IMG/VR virus record: IMGVR_UViG_3300048839_000437
Span: 1 to 48,298 of that record
Length of the DNA: 48,298 bases
From: a virus
Reading direction: 5' to 3' (one strand)
Shown: positions 4,208-44,769 of the stretch, in pieces
Numbering within the stretch: the stretch's first letter is position 1
Layout: every line of letters starts with the position of its first letter
Notes under the pieces: generated by a model
The model's input: the letters and a program-made list of their open reading frames with translations, nothing else
Databases searched by the model: none
What the model was told of the DNA's origin: nothing
Program-made: the position numbers and the translations under genes

Positions 4208-5084
4208 CGCATTCCCCCATGATTTCCGCTTTCGCCTGAGCGATGGCGGCCAGGTTGTGGTAATAGGTTTTAGATTGAGGAGCGCTAGATAGCGGCCTTG
4301 TTCCACCACGGTCTTGCTCTCGCTTTAGCCAAGTGATGATGTGGCGATGAACGCCTTTTGCCGTTTTACGTCTTTCAGGGTTTGCGATATTCCATTGCCG
4401 TATTTCTTTCAGAGACTGTAAAACGTTGACGGCTTTATAGGTTGACTGCCATTCATCGATCATGGATTGAGAAATTTGAAACCCAGAACATCCGTTCCCG
4501 ATGATCGGAATTTCAATCACCGGTGGTCCGATGGAGTCCGAAACCTCGGAGGCGTTTTTCGCCTCTGAGGTAAAAAACTCTGAACAACGTGAAGAGTTTT
4601 TACTATATTCCCCTTCCCTTTCCTTTTCCCCCGTGGGCACGCCTGGGCACGCCTGGGCACGCGTGGTTGACGCGTGGTTGACGCGTGGGGCACGCGTACT
4701 TAAACTATTTGATTTTGTTCGTGAATTTTTCTCAGAATTTTTACACTTTTCCGGATCAGGCAAAATGCTTTTTGATTCGCGGTGGTTGATAATTTGGTGT
4801 TGCCTGAAAGTTGGGATGAAACCGTAAATTTTCGATTCGGCTTCGTAACGCACGATAAAGCCACGCGTGGCCAACGCGTGAAGCACGCGTGAAAAATCAA
4901 TATTATCAAACGGTAAGATATCTAATTTGAGTATTTCCGGACGCCATTTAAAACGTCCTTCGCGGTCCGCAACTGTCCATAAGCCTGCGTATGCAACCCG
5001 CAAAGGCAACCCCTCTTCTTGCTCTGCAATGAAAAGCTCGAAGTGTCTAAAAAACTCCGGCTTGATTGTCCTGATACGGGCCAT
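4194..5084 (-). CDS. Phage replication initiator (O-like), origin inside gene
   Basis: A 296-residue protein starting at ATG 5082-5084 after AGAGGTGG. The N-terminal 100 residues (MARIRTIKPEFFRHFELF..., LPLRVAYAGLWTVADREGRFKWRPEILKLDILP, FIPTFRQHQIINHRES) are the winged-helix domain typical of phage replisome organisers. A low-complexity linker (about 110-170) follows. The C-terminal part (W...Y..., LKEIRQWNIANPERRKTAKGVHRHIITWLKRE) resembles DnaT/DnaD-type primosome domains. The linker and part of the N-domain are encoded by ACGCGTG iterons, so the protein probably binds its own gene as the origin, as λ O does. The following gene is the probable helicase loader. Confidence 0.8.
   Translation of the reverse strand: MARIRTIKPEFFRHFELFIAEQEEGLPLRVAYAGLWTVADREGRFKWRPEILKLDILPFDNIDFSRVLHALATRGFIVRYEAESKIYGFIPTFRQHQIINHRESKSILPDPEKCKNSEKNSRTKSNSLSTRAPRVNHASTTRAQACPGVPTGEKEREGEYSKNSSRCSEFFTSEAKNASEVSDSIGPPVIEIPIIGNGCSGFQISQSMIDEWQSTYKAVNVLQSLKEIRQWNIANPERRKTAKGVHRHIITWLKREQDRGGTRPLSSAPQSKTYYHNLAAIAQAKAEIMGECDETD
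4634..4696. repeat. Iteron cluster 1, predicted replication origin
   Basis: Six tandem 10-11 bp repeats lie inside the initiator gene: TGGGCACGCC twice, TGGGCACGCG, TGGTTGACGCG twice, TGGGGCACGCG. The core ACGCGT starts at 4659, 4670, 4681 and 4692, an exact 11-bp period (one helical turn). A very AT-rich stretch (about 4697-4755) follows directly and could be the unwinding element. Iterons plus AT-rich DNA in the middle of an initiator gene is the λ oriλ layout. Confidence 0.75.
4862..4891. repeat. Iteron cluster 2, predicted replication origin
   Basis: Three further copies of the same core, CACGCGTG (4862-4869), AACGCGTG (4873-4880) and CACGCGTG (4884-4891), again exactly 11 bp apart. They flank the AT-rich segment on the other side from cluster 1. 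Two sets of the same site around AT-rich DNA suggest cooperative binding of the initiator. Confidence 0.7.
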
Positions 5085-5395: not shown

Positions 5396-5895
5396 TTTGG
5401 TAGCGCCTTTCTTTTGTTTATGGTGTCAATTGCGACAGCGACAAGAAATAAAACCTGCTGCCGCGAAGTCCTGAAATCCCTCCTTGCCATGGTTTCGACT
5501 TCATCCTTAATACTTTCGAACCCAGAAAAAAGTTGATTGATAAGCTCGGCTTCCTTCCGGTTGCGTGTATTTTTCCGGATAGCGCTCATACACGCTTTAC
5601 ACCAAGTTTGATGACCGTCGGAGTATGCCCTGTTTATTGAAAACTCGCCCAGCGGCTTTGACTTCTTGCAAGACATACATTCTTTTTCTGTAATCGGTTT
5701 TGGTTCCTTCCGCGCTTCAATCTTAACTTCCGCTTTTGGTCGTCCAGGCTTCTTTTTTTCCGGCTGTAAAACCGTGTTTTCGCCAGACTGACCACCAATA
5801 TAAGCGACATACTCAATTCGTTTTTCGCATTTTATACAAGAATCATTATTCTTGTCCTCACCCAAAAACTCACAGTCCCGGCATGGTGATTTCAT
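5392..5895 (-). CDS. Two-zinc-finger protein with AT-hook-like motif
   Basis: A 167-residue protein. A first Cys4 site (CRDCEFLG...DSCIKC, residues 5-23), a basic linker with KKKPGRPKAE (about 47-56, an AT-hook core GRP), and a second Cys4 finger, CMSCKKSKPLGEF ... GHQTWCKAC (about 73-102), are followed by a helical C-terminal region. The second finger is of the type seen at the start of some phage HNH-like and zinc-finger proteins, but no HNH residues follow. DNA binding is likely; the role is unknown. Confidence 0.75.
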   Translation of the reverse strand: MKSPCRDCEFLGEDKNNDSCIKCEKRIEYVAYIGGQSGENTVLQPEKKKPGRPKAEVKIEARKEPKPITEKECMSCKKSKPLGEFSINRAYSDGHQTWCKACMSAIRKNTRNRKEAELINQLFSGFESIKDEVETMARRDFRTSRQQVLFLVAVAIDTINKRKALPK

Positions 5896-7481: not shown

Positions 7482-9094
7482 GCCGCCTCCTGAAAACCGT
7501 TCATGATTTGAGCGATTGCCCGTTTGTAGGCGAACTCTTGAACCGTCACGTCATGAACAAACTGATTTTGCTTTCTGATTACGTTGTTCCACACCACACC
7601 CTCAAGTTCTGGGATATATGGGATGTGAATCCTGACCGAATGTTTTTGGCCGTACCGGTATGCTCGGCGCACAGCCTGGTAATAATTTTCAAATGAATCA
7701 TCAAAGCCGGAAAAAATCATGCTGGTGCAATGTTGAAAATTTAAGCCATGGCCTATTAACGAGGCTTTGGATACCAAAACCCGGATGTTTCCAGACCGAA
7801 ACGCCTCTATGATTTCATCCCGTTTCTTTCTAGGCGTTTTTCCAGATATAGCGACAACGTCTCCGTCATACTGCCGCCTGATAATTTCGGTTTCCTCGTC
7901 AAAAACGGTCCACACGATAACCTGGTGTCCGGCGGCCACATCATCTTGAACCAACCTTGCTACAAAAGCAGGTTTTTGGCTTTCGATGTAAATCGGCGCA
8001 CCCTCATCCTGATACATAAAGCCCTTTGCTATCTGGCTATATTTGATTCTGTTTACCATCCCGAGTTTTGTGTCAGATGCCACGAAAAGGACCTGTTGGC
8101 CGTTCTTGTCCACCGTCATCCTTCTGACGGCCTCGCTTTGATCTGGTGTCATATCAAGTTTATATTCAAAAAACTGTGGCGGAGGCAGGTCCTTCAAGTT
8201 GTCCTTGAAACCGTAGTTTTTTGGAGACCTTAAATAAATAGACCACCCCGCCATGAAACGATAAAAAGCATCTTTGGCATACGGCCTGATTCCCCAATTG
8301 CCGTCCTTGTCGCGCCTAAAAAAGGTCCAAAGGATTTCGCCCTCATTCCTCAATTTTTCAAGAAAGGATCCTTGTGAAGCGTATTCCATGCACTCGTTTG
8401 GCGCAGGTGTAGCCGTTGCCGCTATTTTGTATTCGATCCCCCTGCAAGACTTAATCAGTGACCACTTGATTTTTCCGGCGGACGCTCGCAAAAGGCTGGC
8501 CTCATCCAGAATGACGCACCGGCAATGCCGGATTTCAGAAATTGATTCCGGTTCCCCGGATCGCGGTATGAACTTTTCAGGGTTCACAATCGCGACACCA
8601 GACTTGCCATCGGCGCACCACACAACCATATCCTCCCGGCTTTTCACACGGTGAATACTGAATGCATCTGGGCCATAGAATTTTTTGCATTCGTCGATTG
8701 TCTGGGTGATTATGTTTAGCGGTACGATCAGTAAGACTTTACATGTGTAGCGATGTAAAACCTGTCTAGCAATTTCTAAAAACATCGCCGTTTTGCCAGT
8801 TCCGGTATCACTCCATATCGCGAACCGCTTTAAAGTCAGCGCCTGCTCAACTATAAACTGTTGGTAATCGAATAGATGTGAGGCAATCGGCAACCAACCC
8901 TTATCAACTCCCGGAGGATTGATACCGAAAACGTGCGCAAACCTGGCCGGAGCTATAATTCGATATGTGTCGGCCTCCCAATCATATTCAATATTCTGTT
9001 CCGGGAGTTGTTTTGATTTAATAAACATGTCGTACTCGTCCGGCCCCCATCGGCTAAACGTCACTTGTAACGATGTGTCGTTGAATGTCAGCAT
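7478..9094 (-). CDS. SNF2-like superfamily 2 DNA helicase
   Basis: A 538-residue ATPase. Walker A SDTGTGKT (95-102), DEAS box (197-200), TATP motif III (227-230) and a C-terminal arginine-finger motif VI, YQAVRRAYRYGQ, define an SF2/SNF2-like helicase. The long segment between the lobes fits SNF2 enzymes. Such phage helicases next to a DNA methylase are frequent. It probably remodels or translocates on phage DNA during replication/recombination. Start ATG 9094; four-base overlap with the methylase. Confidence 0.9.
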   Translation of the reverse strand: MLTFNDTSLQVTFSRWGPDEYDMFIKSKQLPEQNIEYDWEADTYRIIAPARFAHVFGINPPGVDKGWLPIASHLFDYQQFIVEQALTLKRFAIWSDTGTGKTAMFLEIARQVLHRYTCKVLLIVPLNIITQTIDECKKFYGPDAFSIHRVKSREDMVVWCADGKSGVAIVNPEKFIPRSGEPESISEIRHCRCVILDEASLLRASAGKIKWSLIKSCRGIEYKIAATATPAPNECMEYASQGSFLEKLRNEGEILWTFFRRDKDGNWGIRPYAKDAFYRFMAGWSIYLRSPKNYGFKDNLKDLPPPQFFEYKLDMTPDQSEAVRRMTVDKNGQQVLFVASDTKLGMVNRIKYSQIAKGFMYQDEGAPIYIESQKPAFVARLVQDDVAAGHQVIVWTVFDEETEIIRRQYDGDVVAISGKTPRKKRDEIIEAFRSGNIRVLVSKASLIGHGLNFQHCTSMIFSGFDDSFENYYQAVRRAYRYGQKHSVRIHIPYIPELEGVVWNNVIRKQNQFVHDVTVQEFAYKRAIAQIMNGFQEAA

Positions 9095-9098
9095 TTCA

Positions 9099-10103
9099 TC
9101 ACCTATCGTTATCCCGGTCCACCATCACAGAGACAAGCCTTGCCAATTCCACACAATTTTCCACCGAGTCCGGCTTGAGCCCGGTGTCATAAACGGCTGT
9201 TTCATAATACTCACGGAACTCCTCTTTCAACTGCATCAACGCTTTGTATTCCGGCGAAAATGAAACGGGCGGAGCGGTCGGTTTTTCCGGTTCAGGCACG
9301 GCTTTTTCTTGCGCCTTGAGCCACTTTTTATAGGCTTTTGCGAAGCGGTCCCAATGCTCCACAGCCTGAGCTTTTACGGCCTCAACCGATGACTTGTTTT
9401 TACTCGCCGTTTCCTCAAGAAATGTCTCGAGCTCCGGCCCGGCAATGTCGGCTGCCAAACTTCCGAAAACATCCTCGGCCGGTTCCGGCTCATCCATCGG
9501 CGGCGGCTCATATTTCCCGGGCGCGGTCTCGGTCAACTCCATATCAAAGTCCATGGCCTCCTCGGCCACACGGAGACCCTTGAGAACATCCCCGAACCCA
9601 TCACGGAGGGTCCAGGATCGCGCCCGCATCTGCAACATCCGTTTCGGATACTGCTTCCATGGTCCGTCTTTTGACCACAGCCCGGCGGCCTTCGCATCGG
9701 ATACCGAAAATTCACGGATGATCGGCTTGCTCTGCCCCTTTCGGACTGCCACGCAAACGGCTTTCATGGCGTCGCCGGAGCCCTCAATTCGCTCGTCGAA
9801 GTCGTCCAGAAGTCCGGATGCGCGGATAAGAGCAAGCACCGCATCACCCCACATGGACGGTCTGCCATTGATTACCGCCACGTTCTGGACGGCCTGCATA
9901 GGAGACAAGCCAACCTCAAGCCCCATCTGGACCGCCACGAATACAGCTTCCGGGGTCTGAATCCCCTTCGGCATCAGACCGGATGCGGCCATGATTCCAG
10001 CCATGCGGTAAAGTCCCTCAAAATTTCGCGGGAGCAACGCAAGACCGGCGGATGGTTGCCCCAATTCGATTTCAGCTTTCGGTTTCATCAATTCATTTTC
10101 CAT
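9099..10103 (-). CDS. recT: RecT-family single-strand annealing protein
   Basis: A 334-residue protein. The N-terminal half, with LMPKGIQTPEAVFVAVQMG, EVGLSPMQAVQNVAVINGRP and MWGDAVLALIRAS, is the RecT/YqaK-type annealase core; the C-terminal 120 residues are Pro/Glu-rich and then helical, probably a flexible tail. It would anneal ssDNA made by the exonuclease encoded about 1.5 kb upstream in the operon. ATG 10101-10103 follows GGAGGCGAAA; the longer in-frame start is inside the previous gene. Confidence 0.88.
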   Translation of the reverse strand: MENELMKPKAEIELGQPSAGLALLPRNFEGLYRMAGIMAASGLMPKGIQTPEAVFVAVQMGLEVGLSPMQAVQNVAVINGRPSMWGDAVLALIRASGLLDDFDERIEGSGDAMKAVCVAVRKGQSKPIIREFSVSDAKAAGLWSKDGPWKQYPKRMLQMRARSWTLRDGFGDVLKGLRVAEEAMDFDMELTETAPGKYEPPPMDEPEPAEDVFGSLAADIAGPELETFLEETASKNKSSVEAVKAQAVEHWDRFAKAYKKWLKAQEKAVPEPEKPTAPPVSFSPEYKALMQLKEEFREYYETAVYDTGLKPDSVENCVELARLVSVMVDRDNDR

Positions 10104-12141: not shown

Positions 12142-12825
12142 TTATTGCGCCGGAGCTTCCATATAAGACGTTTTTGCGACTGGAACCGTTCCGAACACGT
12201 TCCGCAACTGTTCTTCCCTTTGCCGATAAACCTTGATGGTTTCTTTCAGCTTCGCGTTTTCCTCGTTGAGCGCATGGACGGTCAGCTTCAACTTGTCAAT
12301 CTGCTCATCCTTTTCTTTTATCTGTTGGATATATTCGGCAATTGTCTGCATCCGCCTTTGAGATTCGGCCTCGATTTCGCTTTTGGTAGGTCCAACCGGA
12401 GCTTGGTCCGCTTTCGGCTTGCTGTTGGCCTTGATGATCTTGTCGATTTTCAGCCGGTTGACGCCTTTGGTTTCCTCGATCTTCTTGACCACATCTGGAA
12501 CCTTGTCGGCCCCGCATTCGGCCTGGATTTTGGATACAAGCCCCGGACCCCACTTCGCGGCGGCTTCCGGATGAGCGATGAACGCGAACCGCTCCTTGTT
12601 GTAGGTCCATTCGCGCAAATTGTGCTTGTCCATCAGGTAAACCTTAAATGAGGCGCTTTTGTACACCGGATTTTCCCGGAAACGTCTTGTCCTTTCGAGG
12701 TAGTAAAGAGTCAAAATCAAGTCTTTCCGGTTACTTGCGGCGTTCCGGGAAAACTTCTCGCACTTCGTCTCAATTTCTCCGATTGCCGCTGAGTCATACT
12801 TCTTTTTCAGGTCGTCTAGTAACAT
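12142..12825 (-). CDS. Coiled-coil phage protein, unknown function
   Basis: A 227-residue protein: a helical N-terminal domain (about 1-130) and a long C-terminal coiled coil (150-210, IQQIKEKDEQIDKLKLTVHALNEENAKLKETIK) ending in a short tail. AAGGAG precedes the ATG at 12823-12825. It is the first ordinary gene downstream of repeat array 1, so its transcript would carry the array as leader. Role unknown. Confidence 0.65.
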   Translation of the reverse strand: MLLDDLKKKYDSAAIGEIETKCEKFSRNAASNRKDLILTLYYLERTRRFRENPVYKSASFKVYLMDKHNLREWTYNKERFAFIAHPEAAAKWGPGLVSKIQAECGADKVPDVVKKIEETKGVNRLKIDKIIKANSKPKADQAPVGPTKSEIEAESQRRMQTIAEYIQQIKEKDEQIDKLKLTVHALNEENAKLKETIKVYRQREEQLRNVFGTVPVAKTSYMEAPAQ

Positions 12826-12852
12826 TGTAAATCTCCTTTTTTAGGTTGTTTG

Positions 12853-13184
12853 GTTTTGCACCTGGACTGTGGGTTTAAGGTTTTTTGTGGCTTGCATGAA
12901 ATCGTTGGGTTTCATTCCCCTTCTGGCTTGCATTTTGAACATGGGTTTCAAACCTGGAACGGCTTGCATCGAGGACGTGGGTTTCTCCCGGCTTTTGGCT
13001 TGCATAGAAATTTTGGGTTTCAAAAGGATGCTGGCTTGCATGATGGTCATGGGTTTCACATAGCTGTTGGCTTGCACTCGCCGGATGGGTTTCAGAATGG
13101 GACCGGCTTGCACACGTTTCATGGGTTTCACGAGGTCAATGGCTTGCAAGCTTATAATGGGTTTCACACACGAGATGGCTTTCA
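12853..13184. repeat. TIGR-like array 1: 19 repeats, 18-bp period
   Basis: On the plus strand GGCTTGCA and GGGTTTCA alternate with exactly 10 variable bases between them; unit starts fall at 12853 + 18n up to 13177 without one slip. The two lowest-coordinate units are degenerate (GTTTTGCA, GGGTTTAA), unit 8 is GGGTTTCT, and the highest is a hybrid GGCTTTCA. All segments end in T or C, so the true layout is about 9 conserved plus 9 variable bases, and 36 bp per double unit. It starts six bases after the stop of the Nop-like gene. The match to TIGR arrays (36-nt guide RNAs with two spacers) is close. Transcribed strand unknown; minus would be co-oriented with the operon. Confidence 0.85.
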
Positions 13185-13190
13185 CAATGT

Positions 13191-14036
13191 TTACGAATTT
13201 AACTGAACATCCGGATTGTAGAAAAACGGTGGAATGATGCCGGTATGATCCAGGATTACATCGGCGTACACACCCCGAGTCGATTTGCCCTCGAATTCAC
13301 GGGCAATGTGCCAAAAGTGAGACAGGAACAACTTACACATCATCATCCGCGCCATGGAATGGCGGTGACCCTTTGTTTTTTCGGGATACTTCGCTTCCAG
13401 TTTGGCCTTGCTTTCCAGCAGAAACGCCTTGTAGGGGTGATCCGGTCCGAACTTGTTGAACGACTCGCCGACCTGGTAAGAAATAAGGCGGCCCTTCGGA
13501 CTCCACGCCACGACCTGGCCTTTTTTCATTTTTGGCTTTTTGCCGTCCACGACATGCTCCCCCATATATGCCCACCACTTGCTTACGTTCGGGAAGTCTT
13601 TCGAGTAATCGATTTTGTGCGCAAGAACGCCGTCGCCCTTGGCCTTTTTACCGCAACCGGCGCAAACAAACCCCGCTGGCTTGTCGTCCTCTTTTTCTTG
13701 CTTGACAAGTACACCGCCGCACTCCTTGCAAACCGAAACAAACCGATAGTAATAGAGCAGGATCAAATTTCCGGCGATGAACGGACCGATTCCGGGAATG
13801 TCTTTCATCCATGCCGTCCAGATCGGCCAAAACTCCAATTCCTTTTCGATCTGTCTGGACGCCTTACCCTTGAACGAATCCATGTTTTTGATAAGCTCGG
13901 AGTTTTTCATCTGCATTTCTGGGTTAATCGCCTGCAACCGGTTTTTGGTTCCGGTCGTCATTGTCACAATCGCATCATAGGTTTTGCATAAAAAGTTCAG
14001 GTTTTTGATTACATCGTCATTCGCTTGTGGTTTCAT
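13191..14036 (-). CDS. tas: Tas-like protein: Nop/IS110-C-terminal fold, zinc ribbon
   Basis: A 281-residue protein. Residues 1-78 are long helices like the Nop coiled coil. IPGIGPFIAGNLI (80-92) is a helix-hairpin-helix as in IS110 Transposase_20 domains. A Cys4 zinc ribbon (Cys103, 106, 125, 128) is inserted next. Then come FPNVSKWWAYMGEHV (148-162), WSPKGRLISYQVGESFNKFG and the C-terminal GHRHSMARMMMCKLFLSHFWHIARE (223-247), which follow the conserved end of that fold. There is no DEDD, RuvC or HNH nuclease domain. Flanked tightly by two repeat arrays, it best fits the nuclease-less Tas (TasA-like) protein of a TIGR-Tas system, binding DNA guided by array RNAs. An IS110 remnant is less likely. 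ATG 14034-14036 follows AAAAAGGAGCC. Confidence 0.75.
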   Translation of the reverse strand: MKPQANDDVIKNLNFLCKTYDAIVTMTTGTKNRLQAINPEMQMKNSELIKNMDSFKGKASRQIEKELEFWPIWTAWMKDIPGIGPFIAGNLILLYYYRFVSVCKECGGVLVKQEKEDDKPAGFVCAGCGKKAKGDGVLAHKIDYSKDFPNVSKWWAYMGEHVVDGKKPKMKKGQVVAWSPKGRLISYQVGESFNKFGPDHPYKAFLLESKAKLEAKYPEKTKGHRHSMARMMMCKLFLSHFWHIAREFEGKSTRGVYADVILDHTGIIPPFFYNPDVQLNS

Positions 14037-14060
14037 GTTCGGCTCCTTTTTGGTTTAGTG

Positions 14061-14518
14061 GTTTTGCACGCCTTCAATAGGTTTCAATATGAACGTGGCT
14101 TGCATGCATGGTTTAGGTTTCAAAATGGGATTGGCTTGCAATCTTTCATTGGGTTTCATAGTTGCGATGGCTTGCAGCCTTTTCGTGGGTTTCATCGGAA
14201 AATCGGCTTGCATCAAGGACGTGGGTTTCATTCCTGTACCGGCTTGCATTCATATCTTAGGTTTCAAAGGGAACATGGCTTGCATCATTTTTCTAGGTTT
14301 CATGAAATGCATGGCTTGCATTCTTTCATTGGTTTTCAAACATGCGATGGCTTGCATTCGCAGTTTGGGTTTCACTAGCGCCGCGGCTTGCACATGTATC
14401 TTGGGTTTCATGATCGCATTGGCTTGCATTTTAATCTTGGGTTTCATACGATCGATGGCTTGCATTCAATGTCTGGGTTTCAAAATCATCCTGGCTTTCA
14501 TTGGCTCAATAGATTTCA
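14061..14518. repeat. TIGR-like array 2: 26 repeats, 18-bp period
   Basis: Same build as array 1: GGCTTGCA alternates with GGGTTTCA (variants AGGTTTCA four times, GGTTTTCA once), unit starts at 14061 + 18n to 14511 with no slip. It opens with GTTTTGCA and has GGCTTTCA as the second-last unit (14493), the same end signature as array 1, plus a last degenerate AGATTTCA. All 25 variable segments end in T or C. It fills the gap between the preceding gene (stop at 14532) and the Nop-like gene, whose start lies 25 bases beyond. In the minus frame it contains stop codons, so it does not encode a protein there. Likely a guide-RNA array. Confidence 0.85.
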
Positions 14519-44457: not shown

Positions 44458-44574
44458 AATTGAAACTTACTTATTTAGGAATGTAAATACTTTGACTCGT
44501 TTTCGGTGTATAAACACGGAAAAGAGATGAAATGATAAGAAAAATTAGGAAATAATATGAAAAATTAGGAAAAA
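44458..44574. other. AT-rich gap with short direct repeats
   Basis: This gap between the HTH and membrane-protein genes is strongly AT-rich. On the plus strand GAAAAATTAGGAAA occurs at 44539-44552 and again, exactly 20 bp on, at 44559-44572, followed by the partial copy CTAGGAAAC. It may be a binding site or promoter region for the adjoining HTH protein; no clear -35/-10 pair was found. Confidence 0.5.
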
Positions 44575-44769
44575 CTAGGAAACTTCTTTTCCGTCTTTGT
44601 TGAATTTACAAGTCAAAACAGATATTCGTGGTATCCGAATTATGCCGACCTTCCGGACGCAATCGAGATGCCCATGGGCAATCCAAAGTCTCACCGTCCG
44701 CTCGGTCACGCTGAAATATTCGGCCACCTCATCGACCCTCAAAAGCTCTTTTCTAGGCAGTTCCATCAT
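44575..44769 (-). CDS. Excisionase/MerR-like helix-turn-helix protein
   Basis: A 64-residue winged-helix protein: LLRVDEVAEYFSVTERTVRLWIAHGHLDCVRKVGIIRI is the HTH_17/excisionase type. It overlaps the large terminase stop. A TTG and two ATG codons are possible starts; AAGGATGG lies about 10 bases upstream of the first ATG (44767-44769). Position inside the packaging module is odd; it may regulate the AT-rich repeat region directly after it. Confidence 0.75.
   Translation of the reverse strand: MMELPRKELLRVDEVAEYFSVTERTVRLWIAHGHLDCVRKVGIIRIPRISVLTCKFNKDGKEVS

What the first reader, a model, noticed from the sequence alone, without database searches (positions are those of the whole stretch)
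12853..14518. TIGR-Tas-like RNA-guided system in a phage early operon
Seen: a protein with an IS110-Transposase_20/Nop-like core (IPGIGPFIAGNLI at 80-92, GHRHSMARMMM at 223-233) but no nuclease domain sits between two repeat arrays. In the arrays two 8-base repeats (GGCTTGCA and GGGTTTCA) alternate every 18 bp with 10-base variable segments, a 36-bp double unit, 45 repeats in total. Established: TIGR-Tas systems have Nop-domain Tas proteins related to IS110 and box C/D snoRNP proteins, and arrays processed to 36-nt tigRNAs carrying two short spacers for tandem DNA targeting. Inference: this is a nuclease-less (TasA-like) member that may bind DNA of rival phages or host genes, perhaps as a silencer.
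Basis: partly seen in the sequence, partly recalled or inferred. Interest (0 to 1): 0.96.

Follow-up and report, generated by a model that had tools for sequence, protein, structure and literature searches.

The report
Phage TIGR-TasA system with zinc ribbon
This stretch of an uncultivated phage genome carries a TIGR-Tas system, a recently discovered RNA-guided DNA-binding system, in a nuclease-free form whose protein has an added zinc-binding insert and which travels with an undescribed partner gene, giving a concrete lead on what the nuclease-free versions do.

Summary
The finding is real. On the minus strand, two arrays of alternating 9-nt repeats (edge TGCAAGCCA, loop TGAAACCCA) and 9-nt spacers, period 36, 12 + 9 units, flank a 281-aa gene. 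Sequence, NCBIfam and structure tests all put the protein in TIGR-Tas: NF052498 above cut-off, TasR as the best PDB match by profile (1e-51) and by Foldseek, then TasH, then IS110 recombinases. It has no nuclease domain, so it is TasA-type. The repeats carry the TIGR box D (UG) and box C (CCA) motifs and the truncated terminal edge repeats. New here: it belongs to a monophyletic phage subclade (28 loci found) whose Tas has a four-cysteine zinc-ribbon insert. 24 of 27 testable loci also encode an undescribed helical/coiled-coil partner (window 12142-12825), seen in none of the other Tas loci. Arrays sit between the operon's genes and end about 25 nt before tas or the partner gene. No targets were found in the window, in related phages, or in the five MAGs searched. 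Most likely it makes 36-nt tigRNAs that direct TasA, perhaps with the partner, to bind and silence foreign DNA; that last step is inference. Verdict: new variant of a known kind.

The parts
13191..14036 (-). tasA: 281-aa Nop-domain TIGR-associated protein, no nuclease domain
   Evidence: NF052498 TIGR_Tas_endo 1.3e-30, 107 bits against cut-off 100; PDB profile TasR 9mty 1.4e-51, TasH 2.1e-23; AF2 pLDDT 89, Foldseek top hit TasR E 1.4e-10
13596..13754 (-). zinc-ribbon insert of TasA (residues about 95-147; C103, C106, C125, C128)
   Evidence: four Cys invariant in all 24 clade members that cover the region and absent from other Tas; gap opposite TasR/TasH in alignments
14060..14500 (-). TIGR array 1, 12 units, upstream of tasA; 5' edge TGAAAGCCA (14492-14500), 3' truncated edge TGCAAAACC (14060-14068)
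   Evidence: ends 24 nt before the tasA start codon
14510..14518 (-). degenerate leader repeat TGAAATCTA in register before array 1
12852..13184 (-). TIGR array 2, 9 units, between tasA and the partner gene; 5' edge TGAAAGCCA, 3' truncated edge TGCAAAACC
   Evidence: starts 6 nt after the tasA stop codon and ends 27 nt before the partner's start
12142..12825 (-). partner gene c1 (227 aa): helical N-terminal domain (1-133) and long C-terminal helix (148-211)
   Evidence: conserved beside Zn-ribbon TasA in 24 of 27 loci, in none of the other Tas loci; AF2 pLDDT 91.7; no family beyond coiled coils
14321..14356 (-). unit of array 1: spacers TCGCATGTT / ATGAAAGAA (diverged duplicate, copy 1)
14141..14176 (-). 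unit of array 1: spacers TCGCAACTA / ATGAAAGAT (diverged duplicate, copy 2)

Best explanation
This is a TIGR-TasA system of an uncultivated tailed phage. Shown by sequence: a co-oriented unit array1 - tasA - array2 - c1, with arrays in the gaps between genes and no terminator. Follows from the characterised members of the family: the transcript is cut inside the edge repeats into 36-nt tigRNAs (edge - spacer A - loop - spacer B - edge); a TasA dimer binds box C/D of edge and loop; spacers A and B pair with opposite strands of an 18-bp DNA site (5'-A-rc(B)-3'). As TasA has no nuclease, it binds and bends the site without cutting. Inferred here: the zinc ribbon and the conserved partner c1 are parts of this subtype's effector complex (c1 a possible DNA-binding, coiled-coil protein), and the bound site is silenced (transcription or replication blocked) in competing mobile elements rather than in the phage's own genome. 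Probabilities: family identity about 0.97; RNA-guided DNA binding about 0.85; foreign mobile-element DNA as the natural target about 0.55; c1 acting in the complex about 0.6.
For: Repeat architecture identical to the published one: two alternating 9-nt repeats with 9-nt spacers, UG...CCA in both, C-G inner pair in the edge, truncated terminal edges. NCBIfam TIGR-Tas model above cut-off; TasR and TasH best in PDB by sequence and fold, then IS110. No nuclease domain. Arrays adjacent to tas in every related locus. Zn Cys invariant, clade SH-aLRT 99. Partner c1 in 24 of 27 loci, none in other Tas loci, and never found away from this TasA. Arrays end 14-40 nt before tas or c1 starts in most loci. 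No own-genome or related-phage target with at most 1 mismatch. Spacers almost completely different where tas is 93% identical (L038/L040).
Against: No target identified anywhere, so foreign-DNA targeting rests on absence of self-targets and on spacer diversity. No expression data. c1's role rests on gene association alone; its fold has no confident match. Three Zn-TasA loci lack c1 nearby (L043, L057, L124), so it is not strictly required. Published TasR gave no phage or conjugation immunity in E. coli.
Confidence: 0.85

Rival explanations
1. Same TIGR-TasA machine, but the natural targets are host genes: the phage uses a bank of guides as programmable repressors of host functions.
For: Phage-encoded, nuclease-less, multi-guide; diverged duplicate guides and recurring half-spacers (TTGATTGAA in three units of L123) fit families of related target sites.
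Against: No exact 18-bp site for the L059, L060, L061 or L123 guides in the MAGs in which those contigs lie, with a working positive control in G001; spacers turn over almost completely between closely related cassettes.
Confidence: 0.2
2. The RNP aids phage recombination or integration: RNA-guided bending of DNA assists the neighbouring RecT/exonuclease module or an integrase, as Faure et al. speculate for TasA.
For: In the window the cassette lies just upstream of exonuclease, RecT and helicase genes; TasR bends its target by about 180 degrees.
Against: The recombination genes are not conserved neighbours across the clade; only c1 is common. No self-targets in the window.
Confidence: 0.08
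3. The partner c1, or another recruited protein, supplies a catalytic activity, so the system cleaves or modifies the bound DNA despite the nuclease-less TasA.
For: Strict co-occurrence of c1 with this subclade only.
Against: The c1 model is all-helical plus a coiled coil with no nuclease or other enzyme fold or family match.
Confidence: 0.12
4. A non-guide repeat such as a protein-coding 12-aa repeat, operator array or IS110 remnant.
For: Arrays are partly open in frames (LKPxxxMRAxx-type peptides); the protein has IS110-like C-terminal motifs.
Against: Spacers vary freely, only box C/D positions are kept; the protein matches TasR/TasH far better than IS110 and has no DEDD domain; the same array organisation recurs in all relatives.
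Confidence: 0.02

Closest known systems
TIGR-TasA (Faure et al. 2025, PMC12045711; Flavonifractor plautii FpTIGR)
   Same: Solo Nop-domain protein without nuclease, dual-repeat arrays of 36-nt units with 9-nt spacers beside the gene, phage setting
   Different: The window's protein carries a zinc-ribbon insert and is linked to an undescribed partner; arrays run straight into the ribosome-binding sites of tas and c1, with no terminator
TIGR-TasR (PDB 9mty) and TasH (Salicola phage CGphi29; 21kl, 9vzx and others)
   Same: Homologous Nop domain (profile E 1e-51 and 2e-23), UG/CCA repeats (TasR), same array geometry
   Different: No RuvC or HNH nuclease domain in the window protein; the Zn ribbon is absent from them
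TasA with TasParB (Faure et al. 2025, fig. S14)
   Same: A TasA operonised with a second gene, arrays around and between the two
   Different: c1 is all-helical with no ParB/CTPase fold and no profile similarity to ParB; their arrays have 10-nt repeats.
IS110/IS621 bridge-RNA recombinases; box C/D snoRNP (Nop5)
   Same: Shared RNA-binding fold (Foldseek prob 1.00 to ISCro4 and IS621)
   Different: No DEDD recombinase domain, no bridge RNA, long guide arrays instead

Membership tests
TIGR-Tas | Nop-domain protein of the Tas clade | tested here: met
   NF052498 above cut-off; PDB profile best TasR/TasH; Foldseek best TasR/TasH
TIGR-Tas | Adjacent array of two alternating 8-12 nt repeats with about 9-nt spacers, 36-nt units | tested here: met
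   9-nt edge and loop repeats, 9-nt spacers, 12 + 9 units
TIGR-Tas | Box D (UG) and box C (CCA) in both repeats; truncated first and last edge repeats | tested here: met
   TGCAAGCCA / TGAAACCCA; TGAAAGCCA first, TGCAAAACC last, in both arrays
TIGR-Tas | Terminator after the array (typical in the paper, not defining) | tested here: not met
   No minus-strand terminator-like site at either array end; arrays run into RBS + start codon
TIGR-Tas | Array processed to 36-nt tigRNAs bound by Tas | not testable with these tools
   needs RNA sequencing
TIGR-Tas | tigRNA-guided tandem-spacer DNA binding | not testable with these tools
   no target found in silico
TasA type | No nuclease domain | tested here: met
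   281 aa, helical Nop fold + Zn ribbon only
TasA + TasParB | ParB-like partner gene | tested here: not met
   c1 against host ParBs by hhalign, prob 0.3%, P 0.19; all-helical, no ParB fold
IS110 transposase | N-terminal DEDD (RuvC-like) domain and element ends | tested here: not met
   no such domain in the 281-aa protein; IS110 ranks below TasR/TasH; element ends not searched for

The most novel reading that the evidence does not exclude
A distinct two-protein TIGR subtype: a zinc-ribbon TasA and an undescribed HTH-like/coiled-coil partner form an RNA-guided, multi-target DNA-binding complex that silences competing mobile elements without cutting, in effect a phage-borne dCas-like interference system with hypervariable guide banks.
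Probability: 0.4. Interest if true: 0.85.

Novelty: new variant of a known kind. Interest (0 to 1): 0.6.

Why it matters
The role of the nuclease-less TasA proteins, the commonest Tas type, is an open question stated by the discoverers, who saw no clear accessory partners apart from occasional ParB-like genes. A subclade with a fixed zinc ribbon and a clade-specific partner gives a defined two-protein system to test, and the pattern of spacer turnover and diverged duplicate guides gives data on how TIGR arrays change.

Tried and rejected
Targets: all 302 unique guides (A + 0-2 nt + rc(B)) against the window and all loci held, on both strands: none with at most 1 mismatch, re-paired controls 1-4. 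MAG-linked guides against their own MAGs: none exact; positive-control 18-mers in G001 were found. Window and L060 guides in 155 genomes of the L060 class: no full 18/18 match, one 17-nt match in two genomes. Degenerate pattern of the window's duplicated unit in IMG/VR: 15 hits in mostly unrelated contexts, none exact to either unit, read as chance. Exact search for the window's repeat triple in IMG/VR: none. Spacer A/B symmetry (operator-like palindromes): none; a slight depletion at equal positions (z -3.7) left unexplained. Single-protein scan of IMG/VR found nothing; only alignments did. c1 as ParB: not supported; c1 as a DUF3102-like HTH: weak only (BFVD E 0.03-0.8; hhalign P 0.014). A first hhalign run used a wrong-strand ORF for one ParB and was repeated. 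Integrated hosts: Zn-TasA in 1 of 155 and 3 of 390 genomes at full length, so the window's host cannot be named. IS110 remnant and protein-coding repeat readings rejected (see rivals).

Full report
OBSERVATION. The window (an IMG/VR virus record) has two arrays on either side of a 281-aa ORF on the minus strand. Read on the minus strand, the unit is TGCAAGCCA - 9 nt - TGAAACCCA - 9 nt, 36 nt in all; 12 units lie upstream of the gene (14060-14500) and 9 downstream (12852-13184). 42 repeats match with at most one mismatch in perfect alternation; lag-36 identity is 0.67 inside and at most 0.44 elsewhere.

IDENTITY. Faure et al. (PMC12045711) define TIGR arrays as two alternating 8-12-nt repeats with 9-nt spacers beside a Nop-domain Tas gene, beginning and ending with truncated edge repeats; in TasR arrays both repeats begin UG (box D) and end CCA (box C), and the edge has an extra C-G pair. 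The window's repeats fit exactly: edge UG-C-AA-G-CCA, loop UG-AAAC-CCA; both arrays begin with TGAAAGCCA and end with TGCAAAACC. The protein passes NCBIfam NF052498 (TIGR-Tas) above its cut-off, matches TasR 9mty (1.6e-21 alone, 1.4e-51 by profile) and TasH, and its model (pLDDT 89, pTM 0.87) finds TasR, then TasH, then IS110 recombinases in the PDB. There is no RuvC or HNH domain, so it is TasA-type. Family identity is therefore tested and met; RNA processing and DNA binding are inferred from the family.

A ZINC-RIBBON SUBCLADE. Compared with TasR, TasH and other Tas, the window protein has an insert of about 50 aa after the GIGP helix with CxxC...CxxC. Scans with alignments found 29 broader Tas loci, each with a 36-nt-period array beside tas, and a Zn-ribbon group: 26 IMG/VR loci and 3 GTDB genome contigs, plus two more in Desulfobacteria genomes; 28 distinct loci in all. 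The four cysteines are invariant in all 24 aligned members that cover them and absent from other Tas; the group is one side of a branch with SH-aLRT 99. Arrays are present in every member, with edge TGCGAGC(C/G/T)A or TGCAAG(A)CCA and loop TGAAACC(C/T)A in nearly all.

A PARTNER GENE. Clustering neighbours showed one family (c1; window 12142-12825) next to tas or its array. An HMM finds it in 24 of 27 testable distinct Zn-TasA loci (not in L043, L057, L124; L034 ends too early) and in none of the other Tas loci. An independent scan for c1 in IMG/VR returned only contigs already known to carry Zn-TasA. It has no family in Pfam, PHROGs or NCBIfam beyond coiled coil and no relative in 50,697 phage records. 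Its model is confident (pLDDT 91.7): a helical domain (1-133) and a long helix (148-211). Foldseek finds nothing in the PDB and only weak DUF3102-type phage proteins in BFVD; hhalign gives no similarity to ParB and a weak alignment to the DUF3102 helix-turn-helix. Faure et al. reported a ParB-like partner of some TasA; c1 has no ParB fold, but their sequences could not be compared directly.

ARCHITECTURE. In the window and most relatives the arrays sit between genes: they start a few nucleotides after a stop codon and end about 14-40 nt before the start codon of tas or c1, immediately followed by the ribosome-binding site, with no minus-strand terminator at either window array end. This implies co-transcription; cutting at the last edge repeat would leave the mRNA with a short leader (inference).

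TARGETS. None found: not in the window or relatives, not in the MAGs of L059, L060, L061 and L123 (18-mer positive controls worked in G001), not in 155 genomes of one class, and a degenerate pattern of the window's duplicated unit hit IMG/VR only in scattered, mostly unrelated contexts. The BLAST-based genome searches cover only gap-free, near-exact sites. Diverged duplicate units exist beyond chance (4 pairs with at most 4 of 18 mismatches, null mean 0.05), including window units 14321-14356 and 14141-14176. Cassettes L038 and L040 share 93% of tas and 88% of c1 at DNA level amid mostly different flanks, but only one clearly related unit. The protein pair thus appears to move between phages while guides turn over fast, which fits changing foreign targets better than a fixed self-regulatory role; this is an inference.

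CONTEXT. The window order is terminase-portal-capsid-tail-endolysin, then the TIGR cassette, then exonuclease, RecT, helicase, DNA methyltransferase, replication initiator and RusA.

VERDICT. The system is a member of a known kind in a variant that the main text of the founding paper does not describe (zinc ribbon: the word zinc is absent from the main text; clade-specific non-ParB partner). The supplement of that paper could not be read, so some of these sequences may already be in its tables.

Noticed in passing
L002:4710-5435 and 5430-5750 (Microcystis phage Mvi-JY20, PP438412.1): A cultured-phage record, annotated 'hypothetical protein', encodes a solo-Nop Tas (241 aa) followed by an unannotated 36-nt-period array (TGCGAGCC / ACGAAACCC), possibly a tractable TasA model.
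   Followed up: partly
L003:4641-5324 (Arthrobacter phage Talia1610, PQ559666.1): A distant Tas-like protein with no dual-repeat array detected within about 4.5-5 kb on either side; it could have a stem-loop array or none.
   Followed up: no
L048:8877-9290: An array with strongly diverged repeats (TATAAATCA / TTAAAATCA), in which edge and loop have changed together (CCA to TCA).
   Followed up: no
L123:4594-5876 (reverse complement of coordinates 8126-9408 used; 31 units parsed): The largest array seen (37-nt units, edge TGCAAGACCA) in a Desulfobacteria genome; spacer B TTGATTGAA recurs in three units with different spacer A. Its TasA is 59% identical to the window's.
   Followed up: partly
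all Zn-TasA arrays (308 units): Spacers A and B of the same unit agree at the same position less often than re-paired ones (0.233 against 0.265, z -3.7); this may reflect avoidance of palindromic targets or self-pairing.
   Followed up: no
window 44529-44582 and 4632-4697: Short unexplained tandem repeats: A+T-rich 20-mer repeats near the terminase gene and a G+C-rich 10/11-mer repeat inside the replication-initiator ORF.
   Followed up: no
L035, L036, L044, L045, L046, L049, L053, L056: Extra arrays beyond the tas-c1 pair, up to several kb away in the same direction (for example L046:11736-12177, L035:10631-10891).
   Followed up: partly
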